From contig CP092863.1 in assembly GCA_030710605.1 (NCBI GenBank), forward strand, positions 140,003,547 through 140,067,546: a DNA stretch of 64,000 nucleotides. The letters run 5' to 3'. Below, piece by piece: positions 3,655 through 59,835 of the stretch (position 1 is the first letter of the stretch; each line of letters starts with the position of its first letter). The notes beneath the pieces are model-generated. The model was not told the origin of the DNA, did no database searches, and saw only the letters and a program-made list of their open reading frames with translations. The stretch is from Cordylochernes scorpioides. Taxonomy: Eukaryota; Arthropoda; Arachnida; Pseudoscorpiones; Chernetidae. A program made the translations under genes and the position numbers.

Positions 3655-3885
3655 TACAAGCCTTTTTGGTCGTTGAGGTATAGCTTGTACAACGCTGACG
3701 AAGGCCAACAGCCCGAAACGCGTACGTGGTTAACTTTTCTTCATTAATCAAGAAACGGCATTTGACCAAAAATGGAATAATAAAAAATCAACGATTAGTT
3801 GATATTTATTCCGATAGATGGCGCAAGCTATCAGCAATTTTCACTTGCACGATCAGGTGATGCCTTTTTCTTAATATAAAATCTT
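3655..3885 (+). mobile_element. Hammerhead-bearing short repeat (Penelope/retrozyme-like)
   Basis: The repeat holds a hammerhead-like core at 3689-3730: CTGACGA (3695-3701), a helix II with loop CAACA, then GAAA (3715-3718) and a GTA site before CGTGGT. Helix I pairs ACAACG with CGTGGT with one mismatch, and the first helix II pair is A-C, so cleavage is doubtful. It is followed by the ATCAACGATTAGTTGATATT and GATGGCGCAAGC blocks shared with copies at 18715-18850, 24225-24300, 25510-25720, 36420-36500 and 51560-51905. Confidence 0.6.
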
Positions 3886-4445: not shown

Positions 4446-4660
4446 GTACCAATTTGTTATTCCCGTAATAATCATTATGGAACTTATTATTAATTAAGTT
4501 TATGGTTTGGTAGAATCCTTTAATGGATTCCTTCAATTAGGAGAAATCTGGGATTTCAACATCCATTTTGTGTTGTGGTACTCCTATAGTTTCTCTTTAT
4601 GAAACTGGTCATATACATCTAGGTTAGTTTCATCGAATCAATACTCATGGACAAACTTAT

Positions 4661-5042
4661 TGACAAACTTGACGGGAGAGGCGACCCTTGTCTCTTTAGA
4701 TAAATTTCCTCCCGGCAAAATTTCCATCTATATTTTAGCCATAGATATGGCCCGCCAGCTAAACATCTCTTTGGCAGATTGTCAAGATTCCATCAGATCC
4801 CGTGTGGATCTCATGGAATAAAGTCCGCCCTAGACTGACGAGGGCCATTAGCCCGAAACCATGGTCTCTAGGTGGACGCTTCTCAGTTTGCCAAAGCTGG
4901 TGTTGTGGCTTTGTCACCGACCCGAGGCCGCTAGTTGCGGCGGCGGTCAATAGATGGCGTCTGGTTTTAGACATATATTTTGACGGGAGAGGCGACCCTT
5001 GTCTCTTTAGATCAATTTCCTCCCGGCAAAATTTCCATCTAT
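4661..5042 (+). mobile_element. Retrozyme-like hammerhead element with target-site duplication
   Basis: A 382-bp insertion in the left TIR of the surrounding MITE. An 8-bp duplication AAACTTAT lies on both sides (4653-4660 and 5043-5050). Inside, a block of about 63 bp beginning TGACGGGAGAGG occurs twice (4670-4732 and 4981-5043) with one mismatch noticed, setting a unit length of 311 bp. One fully paired hammerhead ribozyme lies between the two blocks. No ORF is convincing: the two opposing frames of 70-80 codons here have no domain. The structure equals about 1.2 copies of a 311-nt circle, as expected if a self-cleaved circular RNA was reverse transcribed and integrated by another element's enzyme. 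Retrozymes of this general design are known in plants and animals; this family itself is not one I recognise. Confidence 0.7.
4823..4877 (+). ncRNA. Intact hammerhead ribozyme (type I)
   Basis: All core residues are present: CTGACGA at 4835-4841, GAAA at 4855-4858 and a GTC cleavage triplet at 4864-4866. Helix II is GGGC/GCCC with loop CATTA. Helix I pairs CCTAGA (4829-4834) with TCTAGG (4867-4872), then after a small internal loop GTCC (4823-4826) with GGAC (4874-4877). Helix III is the short palindrome ACCATGGT, typical of retroelement hammerheads that work best as dimers. Predicted cleavage is after 4866. Confidence 0.85.
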
Positions 5043-5563
5043 AAACTTATGGAAGTTGCACCTTTTATCATGTATATCGGGATTCAGACAATAACTCTGA
5101 AAGATATTACAGTGACCTTTATTGAAGATATAAGAGATAACCAAGCGTGAACAAAACTTAAGGAAGTTGTAACTTTCAGCATGTATATCGGGATTCAGAC
5201 AATAACTCTGAAAGATATTACAGTGACCTTTATTGAAGATACAAGAGATAACTAAGTGTGAACAAAACTTAAGGAAGTTGTACCTTTCAGCATGTATATC
5301 GGGATTCAGACAATAACTCTGAAAGATATTACAGTGACCTTTATTGAAGACATACAAGATAACCAAGTTTGAACAAAACTTAAGGAAGTTGTACATTTCA
5401 GCATGTATATCAGGATTCAGACAATAACTCTGAAATATATTACAGTGACCTCTATTGAAGACACACGTGATAACCAAGTGTGAACAACTTCTGTCTCCTT
5501 CGTTAAAATAGAAGACCAGCGACATTAAAGACATTCCACATACTCAAGTTTTGTCGATGAGTG

Positions 5564-23954: not shown

Positions 23955-24215
23955 AATATAGGCATATCCTGACTACGCTCACATGAGCTTAAAAAAAAAA
24001 AAATTGGTCGTAGAGGTACAGCCTGCACCACGCTGACGAGGGCCAACAGCCCGAAACACGTACGTGGTTAACTTTTCTTGATTTATCAAGAAATTGGGTT
24101 GGCCAAATATCAGGGAACAGGTTAAATCAACGTTTAGTTGATTTCTGTTCCACTAGATGGCGCTCTGCCATCTAAAAAAAGCTCGTGTGAGCGGCCAGGA
24201 TATGCCTATTCTAGG
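23955..24215 (+). mobile_element. Hammerhead foldback repeat, intact ribozyme
   Basis: The ends are inverted (GGCATATCCTGAC at left, CCAGGATATGCC at right). A fully paired hammerhead sits near the left end, followed by CTTGATTTATCAAGAAATTG and GATGGCGCTCTGCCATC. The same end pair occurs at 30922-31232, 31630-32036, 33895-33935 and 59020-59470. Non-autonomous; the hammerhead links it to Penelope-like elements (inference). Confidence 0.7.
24027..24068 (+). ncRNA. Intact hammerhead ribozyme
   Basis: CTGACGA at 24033-24039, helix II GGGC/GCCC with loop CAACA, GAAA at 24053-24056, helix III ACACGT, cleavage triplet GTA at 24060-24062. Helix I pairs ACCACG with CGTGGT, six perfect pairs. All core positions conform to the consensus. 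Confidence 0.8.
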
Positions 24216-25505: not shown

Positions 25506-25722
25506 TCTTCTGATCGTACAACTAAAAGGTTGCTGATTGGTTGCGCCATCTATCCGAATAAATATCAACTAATCGTTGATTAAAAAAAAATTATTCCAGA
25601 ATTAGCCAAAATACCCATTCTTGATTAATCAAGAAAAGCTAACCAGGTACGTGTTTCGGGCTCTTGGTCCTTATCAGCGTGTTGCAAGCTGTATCTCAAC
25701 GACAAAACAAATCAAGGATTGG
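25506..25722 (-). mobile_element. Hammerhead repeat with decayed ribozyme
   Basis: The family copy runs from GGTTGCTGATTGGTTGCGCC to the AACGACAAAACAA end. The minus-strand core has CTGATAA in place of CTGANGA and only a partly paired helix II, so it is probably inactive. Confidence 0.55.
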
Positions 25723-30612: not shown

Positions 30613-30921
30613 ATTAGCAAAAAATAAAAAATAGTATTTAATAGTTCCTAATTTTAAAAATATATCGTACCTTTTAAGATTCTATTAAGTTTTCATAAAT
30701 CAAGCTCATATGAACATTTATAAATTGTTAAAAAATAGAAAAATTTGATTACTATTTTGAAAGCTAACAGAAAATTATAAAAAAAAAATCCTGATTGTTA
30801 ATATAATGTCAGTTAAGCAAGCTAAAAAGTATTTATTATTTTATTAACACAGATTATTAATTTTGATATTTATATTTTGCTACTCTGTAAACTTTCCTCA
30901 TTTCTTATCTTAAAAATAAAT

Positions 30922-31232
30922 AAGGCATCTCCTGACCACGAGCACATGTGCTTTTTAGATGGCAGAGCGCCATCTAGTGGAGCAAAAATAAACTAAACGT
31001 TTATTTAGCTTGCTCCGAGATATTTGGCCAACCCAATTTCTTGATAAATCAAGAAAAGCCATCCACGAACGCGTTTCGCGCTGTTGGCGCTCGTCAGCGT
31101 GGAGATCAAATTGGGTTGGCCAAATATCTCGGAGCAAGCTAAATAAACGTTTAGTTTATTTTTGCTCCACTAGATGGTGCTCTGCCATCTAAAAAGCACA
31201 TATGCTCGTGGTCAGGAGATGCCTTATTTATT
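30922..31232. mobile_element. Large near-perfect palindrome with central hammerhead
   Basis: The left arm (GGCATCTCCTGACCACGAGC at 30923 to about 31045) and right arm (31106 to GAGATGCC at about 31231) are almost exact complements around a ~60-bp centre. The centre holds a complete hammerhead on the minus strand. The two mirrored 60-codon frames (30955-31137 and 31010-31192) are by-products of the palindrome. Confidence 0.75.
31061..31103 (-). ncRNA. Intact hammerhead ribozyme
   Basis: On the minus strand: helix I TCCACG/CGTGGA, CTGACGA, helix II GCGC/GCGC with loop CAACA, GAAA, helix III ACGCGT, site GTT. Helix II has two compensatory changes relative to GGGC/GCCC at 24027-24068, which supports RNA-level selection in the family. 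GTT is a permitted but slower site than GTC. Confidence 0.72.
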
Positions 31233-31284
31233 TTTAATATCAACACCTGACCAGCTTATCTTTTATTTTTTCTATTGTTTTTTT

Positions 31285-31577: not shown

Positions 31578-32036
31578 ATGGAAAAACGAAAGAAAAAAAT
31601 AAAAGATAAAAAGATCAGGTGTTGAAATCAATATTAAAAATGGCATATCCTGACCAGGAGCACATGTGCTTTACAGAAGGCAGAGCTCCATCTGGTGGAA
31701 GAGAAATCAACTAAACATTGATTTAGCCTGTTCCCTGATTTTTTTCCAACCCAATTTCTTGATAAATCAAGAAAAGCCATCCACGAACGCGTTTCACGCT
31801 GTTGGCGCTTGTCAGCGTGGAGTAGGCTGTACCACTGCGACCAAAAAATATTTTTTGGTCCCAGTGGCTTCTTGAAAAAACCAAGAAATGGGTATTTAAG
31901 GCCAAACTTGCGTAAATACGCTTAGCACATAAAAAACGAAAGAAAAAATAAAAAGATCAGGTGTTGAAATCAATATTAAAAATGGCATATCCTGACCAGG
32001 AGCACATGTGCTTTACAGAAGGCAGAGCGCCATCTG
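31578..32036 (-). mobile_element. Hammerhead element with direct terminal repeats
   Basis: A block including AAAAGATCAGGTGTTGAAAT and GGCATATCCTGACCAGGAGC occurs at about 31578-31690 and again at 31931-32036, offset 342 bp. Between them lies a minus-strand hammerhead core (about 31763-31815) with CTGACAA in place of CTGANGA, so this copy is probably inactive. The arrangement repeats that of the 4661-5042 element. Confidence 0.6.
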
Positions 32037-32039
32037 CAA

Positions 32040-32593
32040 TATAAAAATGAGAATTCTGTTGATTTTGGTTATCTTGAGGATTATTATTATTTGTTGCTTG
32101 TTTTTGTATACATGAGTATTTATAGAATTGATACTTGATGCTGATCATTTTGAGAATAGAGATAATTGTTGAGTAGTCGTTAAAATAATAAAATAGTTTT
32201 GATCAGAGATTTCTTTATTTGAGCTAAGGAATATATATGAAATATATAATTTGGTAAAAGTACCGCCTGGCTTAAGGCGAGTTAGAACAAGGGAAAACAA
32301 AATATTATTTACATAATGTACAAAGATTTGAGCCGGCCAACGGGGAAAAACAACAACGAGTTTTTATATGCAAAGCTTGACCTCTGGCGGTCGATTTAAC
32401 AGAATATTTGAATCTATGATCTATAATTTTAAATGAAAGAATGTTTTTATATAACATATATATATGAAAAAATTGCCGGGAGGAAATTGATCCATTGAAG
32501 CATAGGGCGCCTCTCCCGTCAAAACCTATATATATATATATATGTGTGTCATGTATAATACATGTTCATCCTTGCCTTTACAATTTAACAAAA
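32040..32593. other. Unassigned AT-rich DNA
   Basis: Includes a fragment at 32470-32520 (inverted GACGGGAGAGGCG and TCCTCCCGGCAA) related to the terminal block of the 4661-5042 element, and a TA repeat at 32526-32545. Nothing else seen. Confidence 0.4.
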
Positions 32594-35086: not shown

Positions 35087-35125
35087 ATACGAGCTTTCGG
35101 ACGTCAGCCGTCCTTCATCAGGTAT
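35087..35125 (-). ncRNA. Hammerhead motif in the Penelope-like 3' end
   Basis: On the minus strand: helix I ATAC/GTAT, CTGATGA (35121-35115), one unpaired A, helix II GGACG/CGTCC with a five-base loop, GAAA (35098-35095), helix III AGCT, site CTC before 35090. The core is complete but has one extra base before helix II. Confidence 0.65.
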
Positions 35126-35401: not shown

Positions 35402-35797
35402 TTACGAAGGAGGTGTATCTGTTGGTATAGAATAAAAAGCAGAATATTGGGGCGGGAGGTCAATCTTTCTGTTGAGGCTGGGTGTAGTATTGGAGACAAG
35501 GGCTTCGAGAACTAAGCGTTGGTATTTATTTGCTATATCGCTATAAACGGGGGTTGTATTGTCGAGATTAAAGGAATGTCCGGATTCGGCGATATGTTGG
35601 TATATGAGCGATTTTTTGTCTTTCGAGCGGATGTTGCGGGCGTGTTCACTGGCTCTGATGGCGATTGTTCGGCCTGTTTCTCCAATATAGCATAAATCGC
35701 AATCGTTACAAGGAATTTTGTAAACGGCGTTAGAAAGGGATTGGGGGTTACGTTTGGCGGAGCTTTTTGTGATTGGATGTCGTAGGAAGGTGTGCAC
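35402..35797 (-). pseudogene. Penelope-like GIY-YIG endonuclease
   Basis: A 131-codon frame. VYKIPCNDCDLCYIGETGRT carries the VYKI/YIGETGR pair of the GIY-YIG fold together with the cysteines typical of the Penelope type. It is followed by R-x3-EH (RASEHARNI) and HIAESGHSFN. The C-terminal tail has YQRLVLEALVSNTTPSLNRK. The endonuclease nicks target DNA for insertion. Catalytic residues look intact, but the upstream frame is broken. Confidence 0.88.
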
Positions 35798-35964
35798 TTG
35801 TAAAGAGTGCGAATGCCGAATTTACGTAAAAAGGAACCAATACCGGAATTCGTGGTGGAGTATGGGAGGACGCAGGTGCTTTTAAATAAAGGAGGTGTGG
35901 TTCTTTTTTGATTGGGTGTGAAAAAATGTCGGTCGATAAAACCGCGTGGATTGCCCGCGGACAA
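35533..35964 (-). pseudogene. Penelope-like linker region
   Basis: Holds RGFIDRHFFTPNQKR and STCVLPYSTTNSGIGSFLRK followed by FGIRTLYK, a conserved stretch between RT and endonuclease in Penelope-like proteins. The second half of this frame is out of register with the endonuclease frame that starts at 35797. Confidence 0.75.
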
Positions 35965-35998
35965 GAGATGCGAGTAGACCGTGCGCCTCTCGATATTT

Positions 35999-36325
35999 TT
36001 AAAGAAAGGGAGGGAACAGTGGGTGTAGATACGTTTGGAAAGAGTTCGGACGGTGGTGATCTTGTGGGAGACGGGGGGCGTGGGATGAAAAATGTAGGTA
36101 CGAGGGGGTAAAGCCGGGTTTGTGAAAGACCGTTGTGTGGAATTTATCGTCGGTGTTAATAATTAAAATGTCTAAAAATGGAATACAGTTAGAGCGGGAC
36201 GGGTTGTGTGTAAAAAGTAGATCCGGATGGTAAGAGTTTAAAGCGGTGAGAATGGGTAAATGATCGGTATCTCGGTGTAGGCAGAAGATGTCGTCTACGT
36301 AACGTAACCAAGTAACGACCCCCAA
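35999..36325 (-). pseudogene. Penelope-like RT fragment (YVDD)
   Basis: 109 codons with TWLRYVDDIFCLHR, the catalytic RT motif, and CIPFLDILIINTDDKFHTTV, the conserved PFLD segment downstream. The 5' part of the RT is absent. The frame closes at 35999, and the next part of the protein lies in another frame (35964-35533), so a frameshift lies in the 35965-36000 region. Confidence 0.85.
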
Positions 36326-37356: not shown

Positions 37357-37427
37357 TGCATCGGCCGGGAATCGAACCCGGGCCGCCCGCGTGGCAGGCG
37401 AGCATTCTACCACTGAACCACCGATGC
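37357..37427 (-). tRNA. tRNA-Gly (anticodon GCC)
   Basis: A 71-nt minus-strand gene. The seven-pair acceptor is GCATCGG/CCGATGC with discriminator A. Box A is GGTTCAGTGGTAGAATG-like, the anticodon GCC is complementary to 37393-37395, and box B is GGTTCGATTCC. A run of T on the minus strand directly after the 3' end (37344-37356) is a Pol III terminator. All stems pair, so it looks functional. There is no intron. It lies between a Helitron-like element and a minisatellite. Confidence 0.95.
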
Positions 37428-37682: not shown

Positions 37683-38192
37683 GATTTACTCTTCATTGTT
37701 GGCTTTTTAACTTACATTCATTCTTCATTGTTGGCTTTTTATATTACATTCACTCTTCATTGTTGGCTTTTTATCTTACATTCACTCTGTTGGCTTTTAT
37801 ATTACATTTACTCTTCATTGTTGGCTTTTTATCTTACATTCACTCTTCATTGTTGGCTTTTTATATTATATTTACTCTTCATTGTTGGCTTTTTATCTTA
37901 CATTCATTCTTCATTGTTGGCTTTTTATATTCCATTTACTCTTCATTGTTGGCTTTTTATCTTACATTCACTCTTCATTGCTGGCTTTTTATCTTACATT
38001 CATTCTTCATTGTTGGCTTTTTATATTACATTCGCTCTTCATTGTTGGCTTTTTATCTTACATTCATTCTTCATTTTTGGCTTTTTATATTACATTCACT
38101 CTTCATTGTTGGCTTTTTATCTTACATTCATTCTTCATTGTTGGCTTTTTATATTGCATTCACTCTTCATTGTTGGCTTTTTATATCATATA
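37683..38192 (+). repeat. 32-bp minisatellite, array 1
   Basis: The unit is CTTCATTGTTGGCTTTTTAT followed by (C/A)TTACATTCAC or T. CTTACA and ATTACA variants often alternate, giving a 64-bp pattern. Because 32 is not a multiple of 3, all three frames stay open; these are not genes. Confidence 0.9.
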
Positions 38193-38538
38193 GAAAATCA
38201 TAGTTTTATCTAGTGAACATTTTTTCCCGTGTCACATTGCCGTGTCATCCTGAGATAATCTTACTTTTGATAAATAATATTTAAGATAACAAACTTAGTG
38301 ATAAGAAAACTTGTTATCATCGTCACAATGGGGGCGCTGCTTGCGAGTTAAATCTACAAATCTGCAAGTAACTCTAAGGTTATTCAAGATATTCATGAAA
38401 TTATTTTTCAAAAACCTTCCCGGTGATATACCTAATAATATCCCAAAATTTCACGGCGATTGGATGTGTGGTTTTTGAATCTATAGAGTACAAACAAACA
38501 AACAGACATACAGACAGATATTCAATTTTATATATATA
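38193..38538 (-). repeat. Truncated Helitron-like end between the minisatellites
   Basis: Matches 36880-37318 in part (GGCGCTGCTTGCGAGTTAAA, TTTCACGGCGATTGGATG, CAGACAGA tail) and is nearly the same as 39115-39470, showing that minisatellite plus flank was duplicated as one block. Confidence 0.65.
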
Positions 38539-39114
38539 GATTTACTCTTCATTGTTGGCTTTTTATCTTACATTCACTCTTCATTGTTGGCTTTTTATAT
38601 TATATTTACTCTTCATTGTTGGCTTTTTATCTTACATTCATTCTTCATTGTTGGCTTTTTATATTACATTTACTCTTCATTGTTGGCTTTTTATCTTACA
38701 TTCACTCTTCATTGTTGGCTTTTTATCTTACATTCATTCTTCATTGTTGGCTTTTTATATTACATTCACTCTTCATTGTTGGCTTTTTATCTTACATTCA
38801 TTCTTCATTGTTGGCTTTTTATCTTACATTCATTCTTCATTGTTGGCTTTTTATATTACATTCACTCTTCATTGTTGGCTTTTTATCTTACATTTACTCT
38901 TCATTGCTGGCTTTTTATCTTACATTCACTCTTCATTGTTGGCTTTTTATATTATATTTACTCTTCTTTGTTGGCTTTTTATCTTACATTCATTCTTCAT
39001 TGTTGGCTTTTTATATTACATTTACTATTCATTGTTGGCTTTTTATCTTACATTCATTCTTCATTGTTGGCTTTTTATATTACATTCACTCTTCATTGTT
39101 GGCTTTTTATATCA
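38539..39114 (+). repeat. 32-bp minisatellite, array 2
   Basis: Same unit and same right flank as array 1, about 18 units. ORFs of 167-195 codons in three frames come from the repeat. Confidence 0.9.
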
Positions 39115-39470: not shown

Positions 39471-40669
39471 TCCCAAGACCATGAAGAAATCTCTGATACT
39501 ATTAATAATAAATAATAAAAACAATTCACCGCAAACTTGAAACTATCCAACTATTCCGACTTTTCTCCCAGATAACTGAGGTAAACAATGCGGCTGATGG
39601 TACAAACAGTATGTTTATTTTATAATTTAAAAAAGGGCACCTCTCCCTTTGAATAAAAGCATAGAGGTGTCTTTATTGGTGAGAGGTGTCAGAACATACA
39701 AAGGCGTGTGGTCGGCACCAAAAGAAGTTGAACCATGAACATATTGCCAGGTGCAACCAGCTTTCAACTAAATTTAATGAGATGTGTAAAAATATCAGAA
39801 GAAACTAATCCTTGGTCTGCCCATTTTCTACACAACTTTCAATAGGTAGAGCAATAAAATCAAAAGATCATTATAGATATAAGATTTGCATAATTCATAG
39901 ATATTTATTAAAATAAAGATCACCTTTCCCGTCAAAATTAACGATAACACTGTCATCTATTGATCGTCTCCGAAAACCAGCGAACTCGGGTAGACGACAA
40001 AGCCACAACACCAGCTTTCAAAAACTGAGAAGCGCCCATCTGGAGAACATGGATTAAGGATAATGGCCCTCGTCAGTCCAGCAGTTAAAAGTCCGCCTTG
40101 GACTGACAATGGCCATTAGCCCGAAACCATGGTTTCCAGGTAGGAGCTTCTCAATTTATTGACCAGAGTCAGCTAGTTTGAGAAGACAGTCTAAAATGGT
40201 GCTTAGTTTTAGTGTCTATTTTGACGGAAGAGGCGACTTATTTTAATAGATTAAACGTCATTTTTATAGAATCTAATGTTGATATCAGTTTTTTTTAATG
40301 TTTCAATATACAACAGCCTTTTTTCTGCTTGTTTTCAATCGTTGCATGAAGTTTGCCAGAGCTTCTAAAACTGCTCATGAGATTGGTACTGTGAATTTAG
40401 AACCTCATCAAAATAAAAGTACCTCTTTCATAAAAATAGACAAGAATCTTAGGTACCATCTATTGACCGTCTCTATAAATCTAGAAGACTCAAAAGCCAC
40501 AACACCATCTTTGGTAAATTCCGAACGCTCACTAATGTGTTGACTAATGTTTCGGACTAATGACCATCATCAGTACAGGTCAGAATTCAATTTCAATTCG
40601 ATCAACAAGATATTCATAAGTGAATTAAATAAATTTAAAATATTTGCTGAGTTTCTTTATTCAGATATT
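39471..40669. other. Intronic DNA with decayed hammerhead repeats
   Basis: At 40085-40150 there is a degraded copy of the 4823-4877 hammerhead (CTGACAATGGCCATTAGCCC, GAAACCATGG), with an inverted partial core at 40060-40080. At 40545-40590 there is a minus-strand core with CTGATGA and GAAAC but mismatched helices. Short frames (40298-40543) have no domain. Confidence 0.45.
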
Positions 40670-43854: not shown

Positions 43855-44060
43855 CCAAAAGAGGCACCTCTCCCTTCAAATGCTCATCAGAACGATGACA
43901 CTATTGCAACACTCTAGTAAAAAAACTTTACTAGTGATGATAAAGAATGAGCCACACAACACCAGTTATGACAAATTCAGACAAAAAGCCAACAACCTGT
44001 ATACCATGGTCTTCGGACTATGGCCCTCATCAGTAGAGTGACGGCTTCGAGTTCATAACA
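43855..44060. mobile_element. Decayed hammerhead element
   Basis: A minus-strand core near 44040-43995: CTGATGAGGGCCATAG then TCCGAAGACCATGG. An inserted base in the GAAA region breaks it. It belongs with the ACCATGGT helix III family of 4823-4877. Confidence 0.5.
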
Positions 44061-44645
44061 TTCTACGAGAGGGGTGAAATACGAGATATAGATGTGTATA
44101 CAAACGGAAGAGTATCAACAATTCAACAACTAACAAAGGGAGAATCAACAATACAACACAACGTCAAACCATTGTTAAATAGAGATAATTGAAATTGGAA
44201 TTTGCATAATTAGAGTATTGAGCGTCTAAGCGGTGGGTGGCCACGTTGTGTCGAATCAATGATTCAAATCCAATCAGTAATTTAATCTCAATCCCAGGTT
44301 ACCTTCCTGATTGATTTCGACCCTTTTCTTTGTTCTCTGGCGTCGAGATTAGAGCTAACTTGGCCTGGCCACGATGTATATACCCTCGACTATATTGTAG
44401 CGTGGCTGAAAGGACATAGGAGAGATCACGTGGTGTTCGAAATCCAAAAAGGAAAGTTATGAAATCGATCGAATTAGGCAAAAAGAGGTTTAAGCTGGAG
44501 AAGTGTTTCCCCCCCCCCCTTTTTTTTTTTTTTTCGTGATAAAGAGCTATGCACGAAAGTTCCTCTAAAATAGAGAGAAGTGTATGTTCATTCTTATATA
44601 TCGATACTTTATGATTAAAAAGTAGTTACTGTTATACGTGTATAT
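44061..44645. other. Unassigned DNA
   Basis: A C run and T run at 44509-44534. No ORF or repeat recognised. Confidence 0.35.
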
Positions 44646-44852: not shown

Positions 44853-45232
44853 TAGATGTAGGTGGGTAATAAAAATAGAAAAGTCCACTAGAGTCTGAAG
44901 TATACAACCTGTGGGAGATTGAAGTTGACAGATAATGAAGGCAGCTCCCTCCCATTCCTCTTAAAATTTTACTGCCAAACTCTCCCGGGTTATAAAATAG
45001 AGAGGAATCAAATCTCCTGTTTGGGAGCTAATCAATATGCAATTTTCCCCCAATTTACATATTGTTTACAGGATCAAGATTTTAGATAATTGCTTTACAA
45101 AGAGTTCTTGTGAAATACCTAGAAGAGAATATCTAGTGGAAGAATGCACACCACACATACAGATATCGCTGGTCACTCCTGAAGGCGATTGTGAGAAGAA
45201 CTAATCCATATGAAATTTTCCTCAATTTACAC
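44853..45232. other. Unassigned DNA
   Basis: A segment at 45085-45150 (GTGAAATACCTAGAAGAGAA) is similar to 45575-45625, on the other side of the next MITE, suggesting a duplicated or split older element. No gene. Confidence 0.3.
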
Positions 45233-45545
45233 TCATGGATAAAACTTAAGGAAGTTGTACCTTTCAGCATGTATATCGGGATTGAGACAATAACTCTGAA
45301 ATATATTAAAGTGACCTTTATTGAAGACACACGAAATAACCAAGTGTGAATAAAACTTAAGGAAGTTGTACCTTTTAGCATGTATATCGGGATTGAGACA
45401 ATAACTCTGAAAGATATTACAGTGGCCTTTATTGAAGACATACGAGATAACCAAGTGTGAACAAAACTAACTTTGTATCCTTCCAAAAATAGACGACGGC
45501 GACGTACAAAAACTTTCCACTTCCTTAAGTTAGGTCCATAAGTGT
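45233..45545 (-). mobile_element. MITE with two internal units
   Basis: ACTCATGGATAAAACTTAAG at the left and TAAGTTAGGTCCATAAGTG at the right. Inside are two 116-bp units in the minus orientation. Open frames here come from the units. Confidence 0.68.
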
Positions 45546-46016
45546 ACATCTTGTTCACACAGTTACAAGACTTCACAAAGTGTACTCACGAAATTCCTAG
45601 AATAGAACCTCTAGTGAAAGACGTCAATGAGAGATTCATATATATCTTTATTACCTTATATCCACCAAAAAGACCTCTGGGAAAACTCCAGGACTATAAT
45701 AGAAAATATGAGACAATGGGACGTAATAAAGATCGTTTAAATGACTTGAGGAATAAGCAACAACAATAACTTTGTTTATACGTTTTAGTTAGGTGTAGAA
45801 GGGCTCACCCGCGAAAGCTTCCTTTAATAAAGTAAATAAAATGAGTTGCGACGTCTTATACTTTTTTTTTTAATTTGTTGAAATCGTCAATCCTGTGATG
45901 ATGAATGTGGGGTAAGTTCAGGTCAGTATCTCTCTAAGGAATAGTTAGTGAAGAGTAGTTAGAGAGTCTGTTATGTAAGGTTCTCTAGTTGTGTGTATAG
46001 TTAGAACATCACGTAC
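45546..46016. other. Intronic DNA
   Basis: A 75-codon plus frame (45542-45769) with no domain, then GTGTAGAAGGGCTCACCC and GCGAAAGCTTCC (45790-45822), a hammerhead-like remnant. Nothing else seen. Confidence 0.3.
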
Positions 46017-51559: not shown

Positions 51560-51905
51560 TTGTACTGGGATCAGGTGGATAAATTAAGGGAAAAAAAGGA
51601 ATTTCCTGATTGTGCAACTAAAAGTTGATGATGGCTTGCGCCATCTGTCCACCTGATATCCATCTGACCCCAGTACAATTTCACTTTTGTACTATTTTTC
51701 ACATAGTTTGGCCTGAATACCTGTTTCATGTTTTTTTCAGGATGCCCCAAAGACCAGATTTTTTTGTCGTTGAGGTACAGCTTGCATCACGCCGATGAGG
51801 ACCAACAGCCAAAAACGTGTACATGGTTAGCTTTCTTGATTAATCCGACAGATGGCGCAAGCCATCACAACTTTTATTTGCATGATCAGGAGATGCCTTT
51901 TTATT
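51560..51905 (+). mobile_element. Hammerhead repeat, decayed core
   Basis: The family blocks GATGGCTTGCGCCATCTGTC and GTCGTTGAGGTACAGCTTGC flank a core near 51787-51830 with CCGATGA, unpaired helix II and AAAAAC. The ribozyme is lost. Confidence 0.5.
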
Positions 51906-52512: not shown

Positions 52513-53719
52513 TATTGACTCGCAGGAAGAATAGGATGGATTTCTCATAATTAAATGGAGCTAATTGTTTCACGTTTATTGCCCCACCGTTAAGTCACCA
52601 TTAGATGATGATTTCTTCCATTTCGAGCCATCTCTGCTCATTTGAAATATCACCATTTGGCCGCTCTCTCATTTCAATGTTGAATATTCAGAATTCCTTA
52701 ATGAAAATGGGGAAAATCATTGGGAAAATCTGGCTCACATCAATGGCTGACTATTTTGTAAATTTCGGCAGTTGAAGCTACCAAACGGCAACAAATATTG
52801 CTTACACCGCTAATATAGAATCGTGATCTTCTGGCTTATATTCTATATTGTTGCTTGTTAAAGAGCCTTGGTACGAAAGCTTGCCTTTTAAATACATAAT
52901 AAAGAGAAACATATTGTAAATAGTTTGAGTCAAAAGGCGATTCATCAATTAAGTTTTCATTCAATAAGTTTTTCATCAATTTTTTTTTTCTTTACAGATC
53001 CAGGTACGCCCTTTTTTATAAACCCAATATTGTAAATAATTCTTTAAACTATAATAGAGCAATTTGCGCACTTTTATTCTTTATATATTATATATGAATA
53101 GATATAATCATTTTTATTTATATATAACGAGAAAAATAAAAAGAGATACGCTCTTAATATATATTTTCATACTGAATATATTTTTAAAAACAATTATATT
53201 GCGTGATATATGCGAAATATAGGGTACTTCTACCTTTAAAATAGCATTTTATCGACCATCTCACCGCAAAGCATGCATACTAAGATAGGCGAATAAAACA
53301 CAGCACACCAGTTTAGGAAAATTCAGACAAAAGCCAACAACCTATATACCATGGTTTCGGGCTAGGACCTCACCAGTAACAGGGGCGGCTTCGATTCCGC
53401 AACATCCTACTAGAAGAATTTCAATCGATCGAAAAATGCAAGTACGCATATCATAATTACTGTAAAACCTCTCATAAGCGATCAATCTGATGAACAAGCA
53501 TTCTTATGAGCGACCACCTTCGTAAAGACGCCCCTGATATGATTCAATCTCCAATGAACGACCAACTCTCTCCATGAAAGACCAAAGTTATACAGTCTTT
53601 TTGGCGGTCTTTCGTGGAAGGTCCTACTGTAATATTGAAAAAAAAACATTCTCAAATTTTAATCATACATCATGTTTTTTATTGAGTCGTAAATTATTAC
53701 CTTTCCCTTTCTAGAATAA
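52513..53719. other. Unassigned DNA with one decayed hammerhead
   Basis: A minus-strand remnant at about 53335-53395 contains TAGCCCGAAACCATGG preceded by a damaged CTGGTGAGG box. Near 53470-53640 is a region with TCATAAGCGA and ATGAACGACC direct repeats. No gene. Confidence 0.35.
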
Positions 53720-54115: not shown

Positions 54116-54734
54116 ATACGCTAGGTAATGTATAATGATGTTTACGTAAAAAAATGCTTATGTCACATATTTACTGTATATTCATTTACATGCTTGTATG
54201 GCAAAAACCAAGGGTGATGGAAAATTTCAGACATCATGTTAAATTCAGCGTGAAAAGTTACAATAGAAACACTTTCAATGTTTCTTGTGCAAAAGAAAAA
54301 AAAAATTTTTCACCTGTTATTTGGATCAAAAACTTTCTTTTACTACTTTACTTCCAACATTTCGACAACCCTCTGTCGTCCTTTTCAAGGAATTACTTGG
54401 TTACTGTTTACTTTTATACAAATTATGAAGGATCTGATATTTTAAAAACTTGGCGCGTGGAGCGCCTTGATACTCAAAACAATGAGATAGAGACAATATG
54501 TTAATGCATATAATTTATGACTTGATTATAAAAGCAACCCGAAAATGGTGCTTTTAATGTTTTTTTTTTTTTTTGTTATAATTAAGATTGAAACAGAATC
54601 ATTATTCTTTTCCTAAGAAAATCCTCAATGAATGAACCAAATGGCCCAAGACTTACCAGCAGACTATGGCTATAGATAGGCCATCTTGGAAATGTTTAAT
54701 TGAAGATATACAACAGCCTTAGGACATCTAAATA
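54116..54734. other. Unassigned DNA with a hammerhead-like remnant
   Basis: At 54355-54400, minus strand, a CTTGAAAAGGACGACAG box, GACGAC/GTTGTC helix II and GAAATGTTGG are found. The CUGANGA box has decayed. The 116-codon frame across it has no domain. Confidence 0.35.
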
Positions 54735-57700
54735 CACTCATGTACAAAACCTAAGGTGGTGGAAAATCTTTGATACCACCGGTCGTCTATTTTTTTTAAA
54801 GGAGACAAAGGCAATTATTTTCACACTTGGTTATCTCGTGTGTCTTCAATAAAAGTCTCACTGTAATATATTTCAGAATTATTGTCTGAATCCTGATATA
54901 CATGCTGAAAGGTACAACTTTCTTAAGTTTTGTTCACACTTGGTTATCTCGTGTGTCTTCAATAAAGGTCACTGTAATATATTTCAGATTTATTGTCTGA
55001 ATCCCGATATACATGCTGAAAGGTACAACTTCCTTCAGTTTTGTTCACACTTGGTTATCTAGTGTGCCTTCTATAAAGATCACTGTAATATATTTCATTC
55101 AGAGTTATTGTCTGAATCCCGATATACATGCTGAAAGGTACAACTTCCTTCAGTTTTGTTCACACCTGGTTTTCTCGCGTGTCTTCAATAAAGGTCACTG
55201 TAATATCTTTCAGAGTTATTGTCTGAATCCCGATATACATGCTATAAGGTACAACTTCCTTAAGTTTTGTTTACACTTGGTTATATCGTGTGTCTTCAAT
55301 ATAGGTCACTGTAATATCTTTCAGAGTTATTGTCTGAATCCCGATATACATGCTATAAGGTACAACTTCCTTAAGTTTTGTTTACACTTGGTTATCTCTT
55401 GTGTCTTCAATAAAGGTCACTGTAATATCTTTCAGAGTTATTGTCTGAATCCCGATATACATGCTATCTGGCTGCCAACTCCTGCCTGAAACTCAGCGAT
55501 TTCTTCAAGAATCCCGAAGAAGAGAAATGCTGGATGAATCCTGCTAATTGCCCAAATGGATTCACTCTGAGTTTCTGGGCAAAAATTATCTTCCAAAGCA
55601 CGGGCCAGGAGAGACATTATTTCTTGAGCACAGGAGGGGACGAGCAAGGCACCCCCGGGGTGGGGCTCTACATCAAGGGCATCCACCTGTACGTGCTGGT
55701 GTCCACAGGGGAGTACGTCTGGACACTGCAGATGACCGGCCAGGTCCACAACAACACCTGGGTCAACCTGGCCCTGTCGTGGTCGGACGACGCCGGTCTC
55801 CAGTTTTTCGTGAACGGCAAGCGCGTGGCGGTGGTGCTGTACCCCGACGCGGTGGGCAAGCCGGCGCGGCCGCCTCTGCAGCCGTTCGAGTTGACGCTGG
55901 GGTGCCGTCGCCTGGCGCTCGGGAGCTACGATGACTTCTCCGACGGCAAGTTCGACGAGCTGGGCGTGTGGTGGCGAGCGCTAGGGGACGAAGACAAAGA
56001 CGTATTCCTCGGAGGATATGATTGTAATCCTGAGACTCATCCTCTGGCCTGCGACACGGAGGTGGATGCACTTTCAGAGAACTTGACGGATCTTGATCTC
56101 AGCAACCCCGATGTCCTCAAAAACTCCGCAAATCATCTGAAGGGCTTTTTGAAGATTCTTCTGGTAGTTCTGCCAATTCCAGCGCTATGAACGGCCACCA
56201 TGGGAATGCATCCTCCCAGCTGGATGCGCTCAGAGAAAAAGTCCAAAAACTTCGAGATCACATCGATATCGTGAAGACCCTGTTCCAGAAGACTTCAGGA
56301 ATTCGAGAGGCCGTCAACGACAGCAGCTCCTATTTAAGCGGTGTTCTGAACATCCAGCAAGGGATCGTGGACAATTTGTTCGGGAAGATGGACCCGGGGG
56401 TATGGCGCCAGATGGACGAGACGGACGACGGAGCGGTGAAGCTGTCGCGAGAGTTCGAATCGTGGGCCATAAAGAAGGTCGCGCAGACCCCGCCTGACTT
56501 CAACATGACCATCTTCACCCAGACTGACAATATGGTGACGCAGGCTGACCAGCTGATGGTTCACAACTTCCTCAACACCAAGCGGTACCCGAGTCCGTCC
56601 CCGGCCCCCGGAACCGAATGGAAGGGTCCCGTAGCTCGCTTCGAGGTGCCCACCGACATCTACGGCGACCGCACGAGGACCAGCCAAGTCAACCTCTTCT
56701 CGGTCCTTTACAAGCACCTCCACAAAACTGCTTCGCTCATTAACTCCGTCACTGGCAAGAATACCGATGGCGTGCACCTGGCCAGCTCGGTGCTCAGCAT
56801 CACGGTCGACCCCGACTACAGCAAGCAGGCGCTGGCCAACGATCCTGTGGTACAACTTCCTTAAGTTTTGTTTACACTTGGTTATCTCGTGTGTCTTCAA
56901 TAAAGGTCACTGTAATATCTTTCAGAGTTATTGTCTGAATCCCGATATACATGCTATAAGGTACAACTTCCTTCAGTTTTGTTCACACCTGGTTTTCTCG
57001 CGTGTCTTCAATAAAGGTCACTGTAATATATTTCAGAGTTATTGTCTGAATCCCGATATACATGCTGAAAGGTACAACTTCTTTAAGTTTTGTTCACACT
57101 TGGTTATCTCGCGTGTCTTCAATAAAGGTCACTGTAATATATTTCAGAGTTATTGTCTGAATCCCGATATACATGCTGAAAGGTACAACTTCCTTCAGTT
57201 TTGTTCACACTTAGTTATCTCGCGTGTCTTCAATAAAGGTCACTGTAATATATTTCAGAGTTATTGTCTGAATCCCGATATACATGCTGAAAGGTACAAC
57301 TTCCTTCAGTTTTGTTCACACTTAGTTATCTAGTGTGCCTTCAATAAAGGTCACTGTAATATATTTCAGAGTTATTGTCTGAATCCCGATATACATGCTG
57401 AAAGGTACAACTTCCTTCAGTTTTGTTCACACCTGGTTTTCTCGCGTGTCTTCAATAAAGGTCACTGTAATATATTTCAGAGTTATTGTCTGAATCCCGA
57501 TATACATGCTGAAAGGTACAACTTCTTTAAGTTTTGTTCACACTTGGTTATCTCGCGTGTCTTCAATAAAGGTCACTGTAATATATTTCAGAGTTATTGT
57601 CTGAATCCCGATATACATGCTGAAAGGTACAACTTCTTTAAGTTTTGTTCACACTTGGTTATCTCGCGTGTCTTCAATAAAGGTCACTGTAATATATTTC

Positions 57701-57990
57701 AGAGTTATTGTCTGAATCCCGATATACATGCTGAAAGGTACAACTTCCTTCAGTTTTGTTCACACTTAGTTATCTAGTGTGCCTTCAATAAAGGTCACTG
57801 TAATATATTTCAGAGTTATTGTCTGAATCCCGATATACATGCTGAAAGGTACAACTTCCTTCAGTTTTGTTCACACCTGGTTTCCTCGCGTGTCTTCAAT
57901 AAAGGTCACTAAAATATATTTCAGAGTTATTGTCTGAATCCCGATATACATGCTGAAAGGTAAAACTTCCTTGAGTTTTGTCTATGAGTT
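54735..57990 (+). mobile_element. Giant MITE/satellite with captured receptor sequence
   Basis: The left TIR CACTCATGTACAAAACCTAA starts at 54735 and the right TIR TTGAGTTTTGTCTATGAGTT ends at 57990. Between them are about five 116-bp units, then 1.38 kb of GC-rich coding-type sequence, then about ten more units. The units keep the same orientation on both sides. Frames of 77-188 codons with FNKGHCNIFQSYCLNPDIHA come from the units and are not genes. Confidence 0.72.
55466..56848 (+). pseudogene. Captured LamG/pentraxin + GAIN receptor fragment
   Basis: The first part (to about 56060) codes a LamG/pentraxin-like domain: CWMNPANCPNGFTLSFWAK, HNNTWVNLALSWSDDAGLQF and FDELGVWWRAL. After one frameshift in a T run near 56145-56155, the second part gives a Ser/Asn-rich linker, then QLDALREKVQKLRDHIDIVK and SLINSVTGKNTDGVHLASSV, resembling the start of a GAIN domain. 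This order is that of the extracellular region of adhesion GPCRs; the GPS site and seven-helix part are absent. No intron is seen in about 460 codons. Both ends stop abruptly inside a satellite unit. It could instead be a large exon (GTGGTACAAC at the right would allow a donor), but the frameshift and exact satellite junctions favour capture. Confidence 0.7.
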
Positions 57991-59835
57991 TTGTAAACAA
58001 TAATTGAAAACACAAAAATATCACAAAATAACACCTATATTCACAGTTTAAAATGAAACATTCGATTGATATTATAGAATATTGAAATCATTATGAGAGA
58101 AAAAAAAAAAGAGCGAGAATCAAATATTTCTAAAAAAAAGATTGTTCCATAAAAGCAAAGCCATATTTAATTTCTAAAAATACACATCAAAAGGAAACGT
58201 CTGAAAAAAGGGCAATATATATTTATTACATTTTAAAATGACTTGACCCCATTTTTCAATGGAAATTTCTAACATTCTTTAACAAAAAAAAAAAAAAAAA
58301 AAAAAATTCAACGATTTTTCAACTTGGAGAAATGACATTAAGATCAATGAATACGTTATTATAGATATATATATGTGTGCACTTATCAATTTTTACAAAA
58401 ATAGATTAAAAACTATAAATAACATAGAACTTTTTTTAAAATGAAACTATTAATTTTTATAATGAATATATAAAAAAATATTCGCATAAGATATCTTTTA
58501 AAATAACTTCGAAATATTCATTTTTAACATCTGAAAAAAAATCTATCTAAAATTACCATATATCTTGCCTATCTTTAAAAAAGTATATAAATTTCACAAA
58601 GTTTTTTTATATTATTCATCATAAATTATAAAATATATCATTATCAATTCAGCGCCATCTATAGCTCAAAATTAGAAATATTTTGACGATACATTTTTAT
58701 TTTTTGAAATATTTATAATGATGGCATATGAGAACTCTACAGAGATTTATTAGAAATATTAAACTATAATACCAATGAGAAATGATACAAGTTTAAATAA
58801 TACAATAATAGTGTAAATGGCAATATTATTGGTTTTTTAAAGTAATATTATTTGTACTATATATTCATGCTTAATGTTTACTTTGACTTTAAATTGTATA
58901 TTAAATAGCAAGATGATATTTGTGTAGTACTTCCATGAAGCACAAATATCTTAAACCTTCTAATTGTTCCTTTAAAAAAAAATTATTATACATATATTAT
59001 TATGAAAAAATAAAAAAATGGCGCTCTGCCATCTAAAAAGCACATGTGCTCGTGGTCAGGAGATGCCTTCTTTATTTTTAATATATTATTATAAAAATAA
59101 TTTTAAAATAACCATCTAAAATGCTTATTAAAGTGGTCAGGATATGCCTTTTAAAGAATTTTAATATCAAAACCTGACCTTTTTTCTATTTTCAAAATTA
59201 TTTTTCATATTAACAAGATAGTATTCACGCATATATGTCCTAGAATATCCATTTCTTGATTTCTCAGGAAGCCTCGGGACCAAATTTCTGGTTGTAGAGG
59301 TACAGCCTGCACCATGTTGACGAGGGCCAAAAGCCCGAAACGCGTACGTGGTTGCCTTCTTTGATTTATCAAGAAATTGGGTTAGTTAAATATCACAAAA
59401 CAAGTTATATAAACGATGGCGCTCTGCCATTTATAGTGCTCATGTGAGGGGTCAGGATATGACCTTTTTTAAAATTTTATATTTTAGTATTATTATGATT
59501 ATTTCTTCTTCTTTTTTTAGACGTTAGACTGCAGTGAATAAAATTGGTGGCTTTCCTTTTTCAATTTTTATTCATTGAAATTTAGAGTCTGTAGAAATTG
59601 CTTTAATTACATAAATAGAACCTAAGTTATGGTATTCATGTACACCAAAAGAAGATTTATAATTAAAGGGAGAGGTGCTTATTTTTGGTGTGTATGCATA
59701 TATATTAAATACAGAAGGCATATCCTGACCGCTCACATTATATATTTATATCTTACAAAGCAGATTCTCCGAAAGACTACCTTTTTTTAAAAATGACTAT
59801 AAGAATCTGATGCGATTCGAACTTTTGGCCTTAAT
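57991..59835. other. AT-rich DNA with hammerhead-repeat pieces
   Basis: 58000-59000 has no recognisable feature beyond A/T tracts. 59020-59470 holds ends and body of the hammerhead foldback family (GGCGCTCTGCCATCTAAAAA, GTGGTCAGGATATGCC) and a core at 59312-59353 with TTGACGA in place of CTGANGA, hence decayed. No gene. Confidence 0.4.

What the first reader, a model, noticed from the sequence alone, without database searches (positions are those of the whole stretch)
4653..5050. Retrozyme-like hammerhead element with target duplication and 1.2-mer structure
Seen: an 8-bp duplication (AAACTTAT) flanks 382 bp that contain one fully paired hammerhead and 63-bp direct repeats offset by 311 bp. 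The insertion lies within a MITE terminal repeat, so its edges can be read. Known: retrozymes are non-coding elements whose circular RNAs self-cleave by hammerheads and are copied by other elements' enzymes. Inference: a circular RNA of about 311 nt was reverse transcribed slightly past one turn and integrated. This family appears undescribed to me.
Basis: partly seen in the sequence, partly recalled or inferred. Interest (0 to 1): 0.87.

Follow-up and report, generated by a model that had tools for sequence, protein, structure and literature searches.

The report
Ribozyme retroelement with Penelope-type insertion ends
A short non-coding jumping element of a pseudoscorpion carries an RNA-cutting ribozyme, and the scars it leaves in the genome suggest it travels as an RNA circle copied into DNA by the enzymes of another element class (Penelope), a link that had been proposed for such elements.

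Summary
Window 4653-5050 is an insertion into the terminal repeat of a DNA transposon, with an 8-bp target duplication, one complete type I hammerhead motif and a 311-nt unit present 1.2 times. The genome matches Cordylochernes scorpioides (pseudoscorpion). It holds a dispersed family of this element: 3044 first-look candidates, 40 scored, 43 near-full matches at 91-100% identity. This is a new family of the known metazoan non-LTR retrozymes.

The new part is the insertion pattern. In 37 of 38 loci read, the 3' end falls at one of two unit positions about 32 nt apart. In 29 of 38 an inverted partial copy is joined head to head. In 24 of 25 readable composites exactly one outer end carries the 32-nt 'tail'. 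Clear target duplications run from 8 to 14 bp. The host's abundant Penelope-like elements show the same pattern (6 of 6 fetched pairs). In three of five multi-unit insertions, two with units in both arms, the units are 98-100% alike, against 94% between loci. This favours one circular RNA copied from both ends of the break by Penelope-type machinery. Circular RNA, self-cleavage and Penelope protein action were not tested.

The parts
4653..4660 (.). left copy of the 8-bp target site duplication AAACTTAT
   Evidence: sequence; the flank continues the terminal repeat seen unbroken at about 45235; automatic edge match
4661..4668 (.). 8-nt filler TGACAAAC between the target duplication and the element, resembling the target sequence just before it
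   Evidence: sequence; near repeat of 4643-4654 (D5)
4669..4979 (+). 311-nt retrozyme unit (319-320 nt in most genome copies); apparently non-coding
   Evidence: ATG frames inside it: 30 aa on the plus strand, 71 aa on the minus strand
4669..4732 (+). 5' copy of the 64-nt terminal repeat (unit positions 1-64)
4823..4877 (+). type I hammerhead ribozyme motif, predicted cleavage 4866/4867; stem III is the palindrome ACCAUGGU
   Evidence: stems I and II, not III, form in the circular minimum-energy fold
4980..5043 (+). 3' copy of the 64-nt terminal repeat; hairpin at unit positions 1-50 in the local fold
5009..5018 (+). site 1 (unit 30-39), one of the two 3' ends of genome copies, in the upper part of the hairpin; inferred reverse-transcription start
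   Evidence: 25 of 38 right ends at unit 28-40
5013..5043 (+). 'tail' between site 1 and site 2 (about 32 nt)
5041..5043 (+). site 2 (unit 62-68), the other 3' end, 3' of the hairpin; end of this copy
   Evidence: 12 of 38 right ends at unit 60-70
5043..5050 (.). right copy of the target site duplication AAACTTAT
5043..5554 (.). target: transposon with 111-bp internal tandem repeats and terminal inverted repeat, interrupted by the insertion
39910..40081 (-). diverged family copy (E 4.9e-25), head to head with the next
   Evidence: (nhmmer)
40077..40244 (+). diverged family copy, inverted partner of the previous
40451..40607 (-). diverged family copy
43955..44061 (-). diverged family copy
53250..53407 (-). 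diverged family copy
32461..32533 (-). only the terminal hairpin of the family (a 0.2-mer with nearly the same two ends, in an AT run)
30912..31254 (-). second hammerhead family: 343-bp foldback with the ribozyme in the middle, one arm 19 nt longer (tail), 8-bp duplication AAGATAAG at 30904-30911 and 31255-31262
35402..36162 (-). Penelope-like element: GIY-YIG and linker reading frames, hammerhead-like motif at 35121(-)
   Evidence: PF01541 E 0.0032, 18.2 bits, below its cut-off of 22.6; the linker frame has no Pfam match and its naming is recalled; 150 scored genome relatives

Best explanation
A non-autonomous retrozyme. Inferred steps: transcripts of genomic copies cut themselves at the hammerhead into 311-320-nt RNAs, which are closed to circles. 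A Penelope-like protein (reverse transcriptase plus GIY-YIG endonuclease) binds the terminal hairpin and cuts AT-rich DNA with a stagger of about 8-14 bp. Each of the two DNA ends primes on the RNA at a fixed internal place, one at site 1 (upper part of the hairpin) and the other at site 2 (just 3' of the hairpin). The copies run round the circle, at times more than once, and are joined head to head. Shown here: the anatomy, two fixed ends, exactly one tail per insertion in nearly all readable composites, target duplications, near-identity of units in both arms of two multi-unit insertions, and the same pattern in the host's Penelope-like elements. Inferred: cleavage, circularity, the enzyme.
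For: Right (3') ends of 38 distinct loci: 25 at unit 28-40, 12 at 60-70, 1 elsewhere. 29 of 38 have an inverted arm head to head; of 25 composites with both outer ends at unit 15-70, 24 have exactly one tail (strict ends: 19 of 20, Fisher 7e-5; loose: 8e-6). Shared words of 8 bp or more at the two edges in 17 of 27, against 19% of mismatched pairs; 0 of 2000 permutations reach it. Edge flanks 81% AT against 64% at 300-900 nt away, richer in 27 of 27. Units of one insertion: L041, 7 full units in both arms, mean 99.76%; L031, 4 units in both arms, 99.2%; L033, 3 units in one arm, 98.75%; between loci 94.1% (max 98.4%). Inverted arm matches the direct arm of its own locus best in 7 of 17, and better than the mean in 12 of 17. 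Penelope-like elements of the same genome: 14 of 30 fetched 3' ends carry a tail (whole or part, up to about 30 nt) and 16 do not; 6 of 6 head-to-head pairs with both ends fetched have exactly one tail and a duplication of 11-14 bp (mismatched pairs at most 8); of 40 neighbours within 8 kb among 150 matches 35 are head to head and none tail to tail. Published: Penelope-like reverse transcriptase starts at two adjacent internal sites and extends both DNA strands at AT-rich targets (PMC11167929); inverted pLTR, 9-bp duplication, 31-bp tail on one of the inverted pLTRs (PMC3846280).
Against: No RNA evidence of circles or cleavage. The overlap inside >1-unit copies is hardly more alike within a locus (94.5%) than between loci (93.9%), though it ranks first in 8 of 25. 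Two of five multi-unit insertions are little more alike inside than between loci (L003 96.3%, L032 95.3%); gene conversion could make arms alike. The hammerhead is not more conserved than the rest of the unit (0.975 against 0.966, p 0.16); the 48 intact of 53 hammerheads (34 of 39 loci had a match) were found with a pattern that already required CCATGG and most of the core, so that figure is flattering. Five composites have outer ends elsewhere and were left out of the tail count; five of the 25 counted have an end some nucleotides off; one divergent pair has two tails. 10 of 27 loci show no shared word of 8 bp or more, and several of the 17 hits are AT runs. PMC11167929 saw no difference in start site between top and bottom strand, and PMC3846280 explains inverted arms by self-priming. 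No BLAST match (E<=0.01) of the retrozyme lies in the part shared by the 30 Penelope loci, judged by position; their 5' ends were not compared. The window copy itself has no inverted arm.
Confidence: 0.75

Rival explanations
1. Same element and same Penelope-type insertion, but the template is an uncut linear multimer transcribed from a tandem array; the ribozyme is dispensable.
For: PMC11167929 reports that hammerhead mutants of a Penelope-like element still insert and that uncut RNA is the main substrate in vitro. Tandem arrays exist (L033, L041). Overlap identity inside single copies hardly favours a circle; hammerhead no more conserved than the rest.
Against: Units in both arms of L041 and L031 are 98.8-100% alike, which one circle explains most simply; a homogeneous array would do so too.
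Confidence: 0.3
2. The inverted arm is made by self-priming or template jumping of one cDNA, not by priming from the second DNA end.
For: PMC3846280 explains head-to-head Penelope arms by self-priming on an antisense template.
Against: A fold-back copy should end at the same site as the first copy; here the two outer ends lie at the two different sites in 24 of 25, and the target duplication brackets the whole composite where it can be read.
Confidence: 0.25
3. A SINE-like element copied by a LINE, the inverted arms being L1-style twin priming.
For: Inverted 5' segments and target duplications are known from LINEs (recalled; PMC2912911 seen only as a search listing and start of abstract). PMC4918200 compares 15-bp duplications of Nematostella repeats to LINEs.
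Against: Outer ends keep to two internal unit positions with one tail; no poly(A) seen at the edges printed; the same pattern in the host's Penelope-like elements.
Confidence: 0.06
4. A DNA transposon of hAT type (8-bp duplication), a miniature LTR element, or a scrap of satellite DNA that happens to hold a hammerhead.
For: 8-bp duplication and 64-bp terminal direct repeats in the window copy; tandem 320-bp units at some places.
Against: No terminal inverted repeat in this copy; duplications up to 14 bp in others; variable 5' ends; no primer-binding site or purine tract by reading next to the repeats; dispersed, 33 of 38 loci with a direct arm under 1.8 units.
Confidence: 0.02

Closest known systems
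Metazoan non-LTR retrozymes (Cervera and de la Pena 2020, PMC7229834; abstract, results parts 1-2 of 3 and discussion read)
   Same: Type I hammerhead, 150-450-bp non-coding unit, tandem or >1-unit copies, target duplication longer than 4 bp, GC below 50% (0.495 here), stable predicted circle, coexistence with Penelope-like elements
   Different: Head-to-head inverted arms, two fixed 3' ends and a one-sided tail are not described in the sections I read; the authors' review (PMC7761336, passages) says no conserved motif points to the mobilising element
Penelope-like elements (PMC3846280 passages and discussion; PMC11167929 abstract and main text read)
   Same: Inverted head-to-head partial copies, tail of about 31 nt on one side, target duplications of about 8-14 bp, AT-rich targets, hammerhead-like motif, more-than-unit copies
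   Different: The retrozyme has no protein, is 311-320 nt and showed no sequence match to the shared 3' part of the host's Penelope-like elements, apart from a short TCTCTTT-like run at site 1 seen by eye
Plant LTR retrozymes (PMC4918200, passages read)
   Same: Hammerhead-bearing non-coding element thought to move through RNA circles
   Different: Type III hammerheads in 350-bp LTRs, 4-bp duplications, primer-binding site and purine tract (also PMC7761336, passages)
Terminons and minimal hammerheads of Penelope-like elements (mentioned in PMC7761336; passages read)
   Same: Type I hammerhead with a weak stem III; like family 2 here
   Different: Coding retrotransposons; Terminons are giant and attached to telomeric repeats

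Membership tests
Metazoan non-LTR retrozyme | type I hammerhead motif with complete core | tested here: met
   48 of 53 pattern-matched genome units intact (pattern biased towards intact ones); but Rfam score 12.5 bits against cut-off 56.3
Metazoan non-LTR retrozyme | unit of 150-450 bp without protein | tested here: met
   311 bp here, 319-320 elsewhere; ATG frames of 30 aa (plus) and 71 aa (minus) only
Metazoan non-LTR retrozyme | many copies, tandem or more than one unit | tested here: met
   3044 candidates, 40 scored; up to 5.1 + 3.2 units
Metazoan non-LTR retrozyme | target duplication longer than 4 bp | tested here: met
   shared word of 8 bp or more in 17 of 27
Metazoan non-LTR retrozyme | no LTR, primer-binding site, purine tract; GC below 50% | tested here: met
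   GC 0.495; sites absent by reading the sequence next to the repeats, no program used
Metazoan non-LTR retrozyme | stable self-paired circle that lets the ribozyme fold | tested here: inconclusive
   circular fold -116.5 kcal/mol, 0 of 200 shuffles as low; stems I and II form but stem III does not and three core bases are paired; 4 of 101 control windows have as extreme a z-score
Metazoan non-LTR retrozyme | expressed as circular RNA; self-cleavage | not testable with these tools
   no RNA reads or bench
Penelope-like element | single reading frame with reverse transcriptase and GIY-YIG endonuclease | tested here: not met
   no such frame in the unit
Penelope-like element | insertion pattern: inverted arms, tail on one end, duplication about 9-14 bp | tested here: met
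   compared with the host's own elements
LTR or TRIM element | short fixed duplication, primer-binding site, purine tract, both ends fixed | tested here: not met
   duplication 8-14 bp, variable 5' ends; features of the family recalled

The most novel reading that the evidence does not exclude
One circular RNA is copied at the same time from both ends of one DNA break by a Penelope-type dimer: one subunit always starts in the hairpin (site 1), the other always just behind it (site 2). Each rolls round the circle, and the two copies are joined head to head. This would explain the one-sided tail of Penelope-like elements themselves, and would make animal retrozymes the SINE-like partners of Penelope-like elements. 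(Lowered from 0.45 after adding that PMC11167929 saw no strand difference in start site and that PMC3846280 favours self-priming.)
Probability: 0.4. Interest if true: 0.78.

Novelty: new variant of a known kind. Interest (0 to 1): 0.6.

Why it matters
What moves animal retrozymes is an open question: Penelope-like elements were proposed because both carry hammerheads, occur in tandem and coexist, with no motif to decide (PMC7229834, PMC7761336), and descent of retrozymes from them has been suggested (PMC11722881, passages). Here the insertion scars give a direct, countable signature that is shared with the host's own Penelope-like elements. It makes the question testable in any genome, and gives a short RNA (under 350 nt) with which two-ended Penelope priming could be studied in vitro. 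The one-tail rule also bears on how Penelope-like elements themselves insert.

Tried and rejected
Rfam: no usable hammerhead call. A 25-nt core pattern in IMG/VR: 0 hits (records of this or very near genomes may be left out there). Protein relatives of the window's laminin-G frame: none at E<=0.001. Overlap identity as a test of circularity: hardly discriminating. Extra conservation of the hammerhead: not found. Self-pairing of the unit as proof of a circle: 4 of 101 control windows equal it. The 64-nt hairpin as a genome query, meant to sample copies of every length: nothing rang, so copy lengths here are biased to at least about one unit. Shorter hammerhead queries did not complete. Searches for print on this insertion pattern in retrozymes: (listed titles, abstract starts and counts seen); nothing found in what was listed or read. 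on chelicerates listed nothing on retrozymes (15 of 3033 and 10 of 830 papers shown). Searches were on Penelope-like elements. The 2014 paper on Penelope hammerheads (PMC4209133) is not held.

Full report
What was checked. The target is a transposon with a terminal inverted repeat and 111-bp internal repeats. An unbroken terminal repeat at about 45235 shows the empty site. The 382 bp between the duplications include 8 nt of filler (4661-4668). Rfam does not recognise the hammerhead (12.5 bits against 56.3), and the minimum-energy fold forms stems I and II but not III. A structural scan finds 5 such motifs in the window where 40 shuffled windows give 0.05 on average; one of the 5 is probably chance.

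Organism. A reverse transcriptase frame of the window is 92% identical, over 68% of its length, to a protein of Cordylochernes scorpioides. Eight contig lengths of the held genome (C1, C2, C3, C5, C10, C16, C19, C22) equal those printed for that species, and one (C21) is 130 bases off a similar one. This is a pseudoscorpion, an arachnid.

Family. The genome search (answered once for this query) gave 3044 first-look candidates. The 40 scored gave 43 near-full matches at 91-100% identity on many contigs. Most units are 319-320 nt; the window copy, and a copy 85 kb away in a stretch that is 97% identical over 2.6 kb, element included, are the 311-nt form. I read 38 distinct loci: L001, L003, L004 and L006-L040. 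L002 (that duplication), L005 and L041 (same place as L004) are not counted. These loci were chosen by a full-length match, so their lengths are biased to about one unit or more; the direct arm is 1.09 to 5.14 units, under 1.8 in 33 of 38. The end positions are not obviously biased.

The ends. 'Direct arm' is the longer arm. Its right (3') end lies at unit position 28-40 in 25 of 38, at 60-70 in 12 of 38, and elsewhere (18) in 1. The terminal hairpin spans unit positions 1-50 in the local fold; site 1 lies in its upper part and site 2 just 3' of it. 29 of 38 loci carry an inverted partial copy directly upstream, head to head (the one in L010 is a stub of about 17 nt read by eye). Counting a second, divergent composite in L037 there are 30 composites. 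In 5 (L008, L014, L016, L022, L025) the outer end of the inverted arm lies elsewhere, in L014 next to masked letters. Of the other 25, 24 have the tail, whole or part, on exactly one end and one (the divergent pair in L037) on both; none has it on neither. L003, L017, L021, L024 and L032 enter this count with an end some nucleotides off. With strict windows it is 19 of 20 (Fisher 7e-5).

Target duplications. Edges of 27 loci were tested (L014 left out for masked letters, L031-L040 not tested). The longest shared word was 8 bp or more in 17 of 27, against 19% of mismatched pairs; no permutation of 2000 reached this. Clear cases are 9 to 14 bp (for example L009, L017, L018, L021, L023, L026, L030); some others, such as 18 nt in L004, are AT runs that could be chance. 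The 30 nt at the edges are 81% AT against 64% farther off, richer in 27 of 27.

One RNA for both arms. In insertions with several full units, all units of L041 (7, both orientations) are 99.4-100% alike, of L031 (4, both orientations) 98.75-99.7%, of L033 (3, one orientation) 98.1-99.1%; L003 96.3% and L032 95.3% are not. Between loci the mean is 94.1% (sd 1.5, highest 98.4%). The inverted arm matches the direct arm of its own locus best of all in 7 of 17. Gene conversion between arms could also do this. The overlap inside single >1-unit copies hardly discriminates (94.5% within, 93.9% between; first rank in 8 of 25).

The host's Penelope-like elements as a yardstick. The window piece 35402-35821(-) is a GIY-YIG domain by a weak Pfam match (E 0.0032, below the cut-off). 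Its genome search gave 47,365 candidates, of which 150 were scored, 96-100% identical, some in open frames of 800 aa or more. Among 40 neighbouring pairs within 8 kb, 35 are head to head, 4 plus-plus, 1 minus-minus, none tail to tail. Of 30 fetched loci, 16 end at ...TCTCTCTTTTTA or close to it and 14 carry more, up to about 30 nt. In the six head-to-head pairs for which both ends were fetched, exactly one end has the tail (6 of 6; partial in L058) and the outer flanks share 11-14 bp (mismatched partners at most 8). This is the same grammar as the retrozyme's. The published description agrees: an adjacent inverted pLTR, a 9-bp duplication and a 31-bp tail at one of the inverted pLTRs in a rotifer (PMC3846280, passages), and two adjacent internal start sites, extension of both DNA strands and AT-rich targets for the anole element (PMC11167929, main text). 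Two published points go the other way: the anole work saw no difference in start site between strands, and the rotifer authors explain inverted arms by self-priming.

A second hammerhead family. Minimal hammerheads with a palindromic or near-palindromic stem III occur at 3695, 24033, 25681, 31097, 31815, 51792 and 59317; only 24033 and 31097 have both core and stems intact. The one at 31097 sits in the middle of a foldback of 343 bp with an 8-bp duplication (AAGATAAG), one arm 19 nt longer than the other, and a hairpin GGTCAGG/CCTGACC around the two ends: the same grammar in a different sequence. At 31815 and 59317 direct repeats flank the ribozyme.

Mechanism. Most likely a circular RNA made by the hammerhead and a host ligase (as published for other animal retrozymes, PMC7229834) is bound at its hairpin by a Penelope-type protein. 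Both ends of a staggered break prime, one at each site, and each copy can run round more than once. Shown: ends, tail rule, duplications, unit identity in some insertions, and the shared grammar. Inferred: cleavage, circle, enzyme, dimer. The main rival keeps everything but the circle.

Novelty. The kind (animal non-LTR retrozyme) is known, with a putative tick example in PMC4918200. The insertion grammar in a retrozyme, and with it direct evidence for the proposed Penelope link, I did not find in print (searches in the papers held).

Noticed in passing
window 30912-31254, 31580-32036, 24028-24207, 59018-59471, 3692-3824, 25613-25681, 51788-51845: A second hammerhead family (minimal type I, palindromic or near-palindromic stem III); one copy is a near-perfect foldback with the ribozyme in the middle and an 8-bp duplication. 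It shows a base-pair swap in stem II (G-C to C-G) that keeps the pairing. 2 of 7 motifs have core and stems intact.
   Followed up: partly
L041 (held genome C20:36098800-36106400): 5.1 direct units head to head with 3.2 inverted units of the retrozyme, the 7 full units 99.4-100% alike: looks like a recent two-sided rolling copy of one circle.
   Followed up: yes
window 4858-4865: Hammerhead stem III reads ACCATGG, a good start-codon context opening a 30-aa frame (4861-4953); in the anole Penelope-like element the hammerhead overlaps the start codon (PMC11167929). Possibly a relic of descent from a Penelope-like element; untested.
   Followed up: no
held genome, Penelope-like elements: Very young and abundant Penelope-like family: 150 of 150 scored matches 96-100% identical, many long open frames; the one-tail rule held in 6 of 6 pairs with both ends fetched.
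   Followed up: partly
window 5043-5554, 45230-45550, 54726-55466, 56849-57981: DNA transposon family with terminal inverted repeat ACACTCATGGAyAAAACTTAAGG and variable numbers of internal 111-bp tandem repeats (about 2 to 10).
   Followed up: no
window 55426-56864: Coding frames (the first Laminin_G_3 by Pfam) with the 111-bp repeat arrays directly on both sides.
   Followed up: no
window 37684-39112: Long array of a 32-bp tandem repeat next to a tRNA-Gly gene (37357-37427, minus strand).
   Followed up: no
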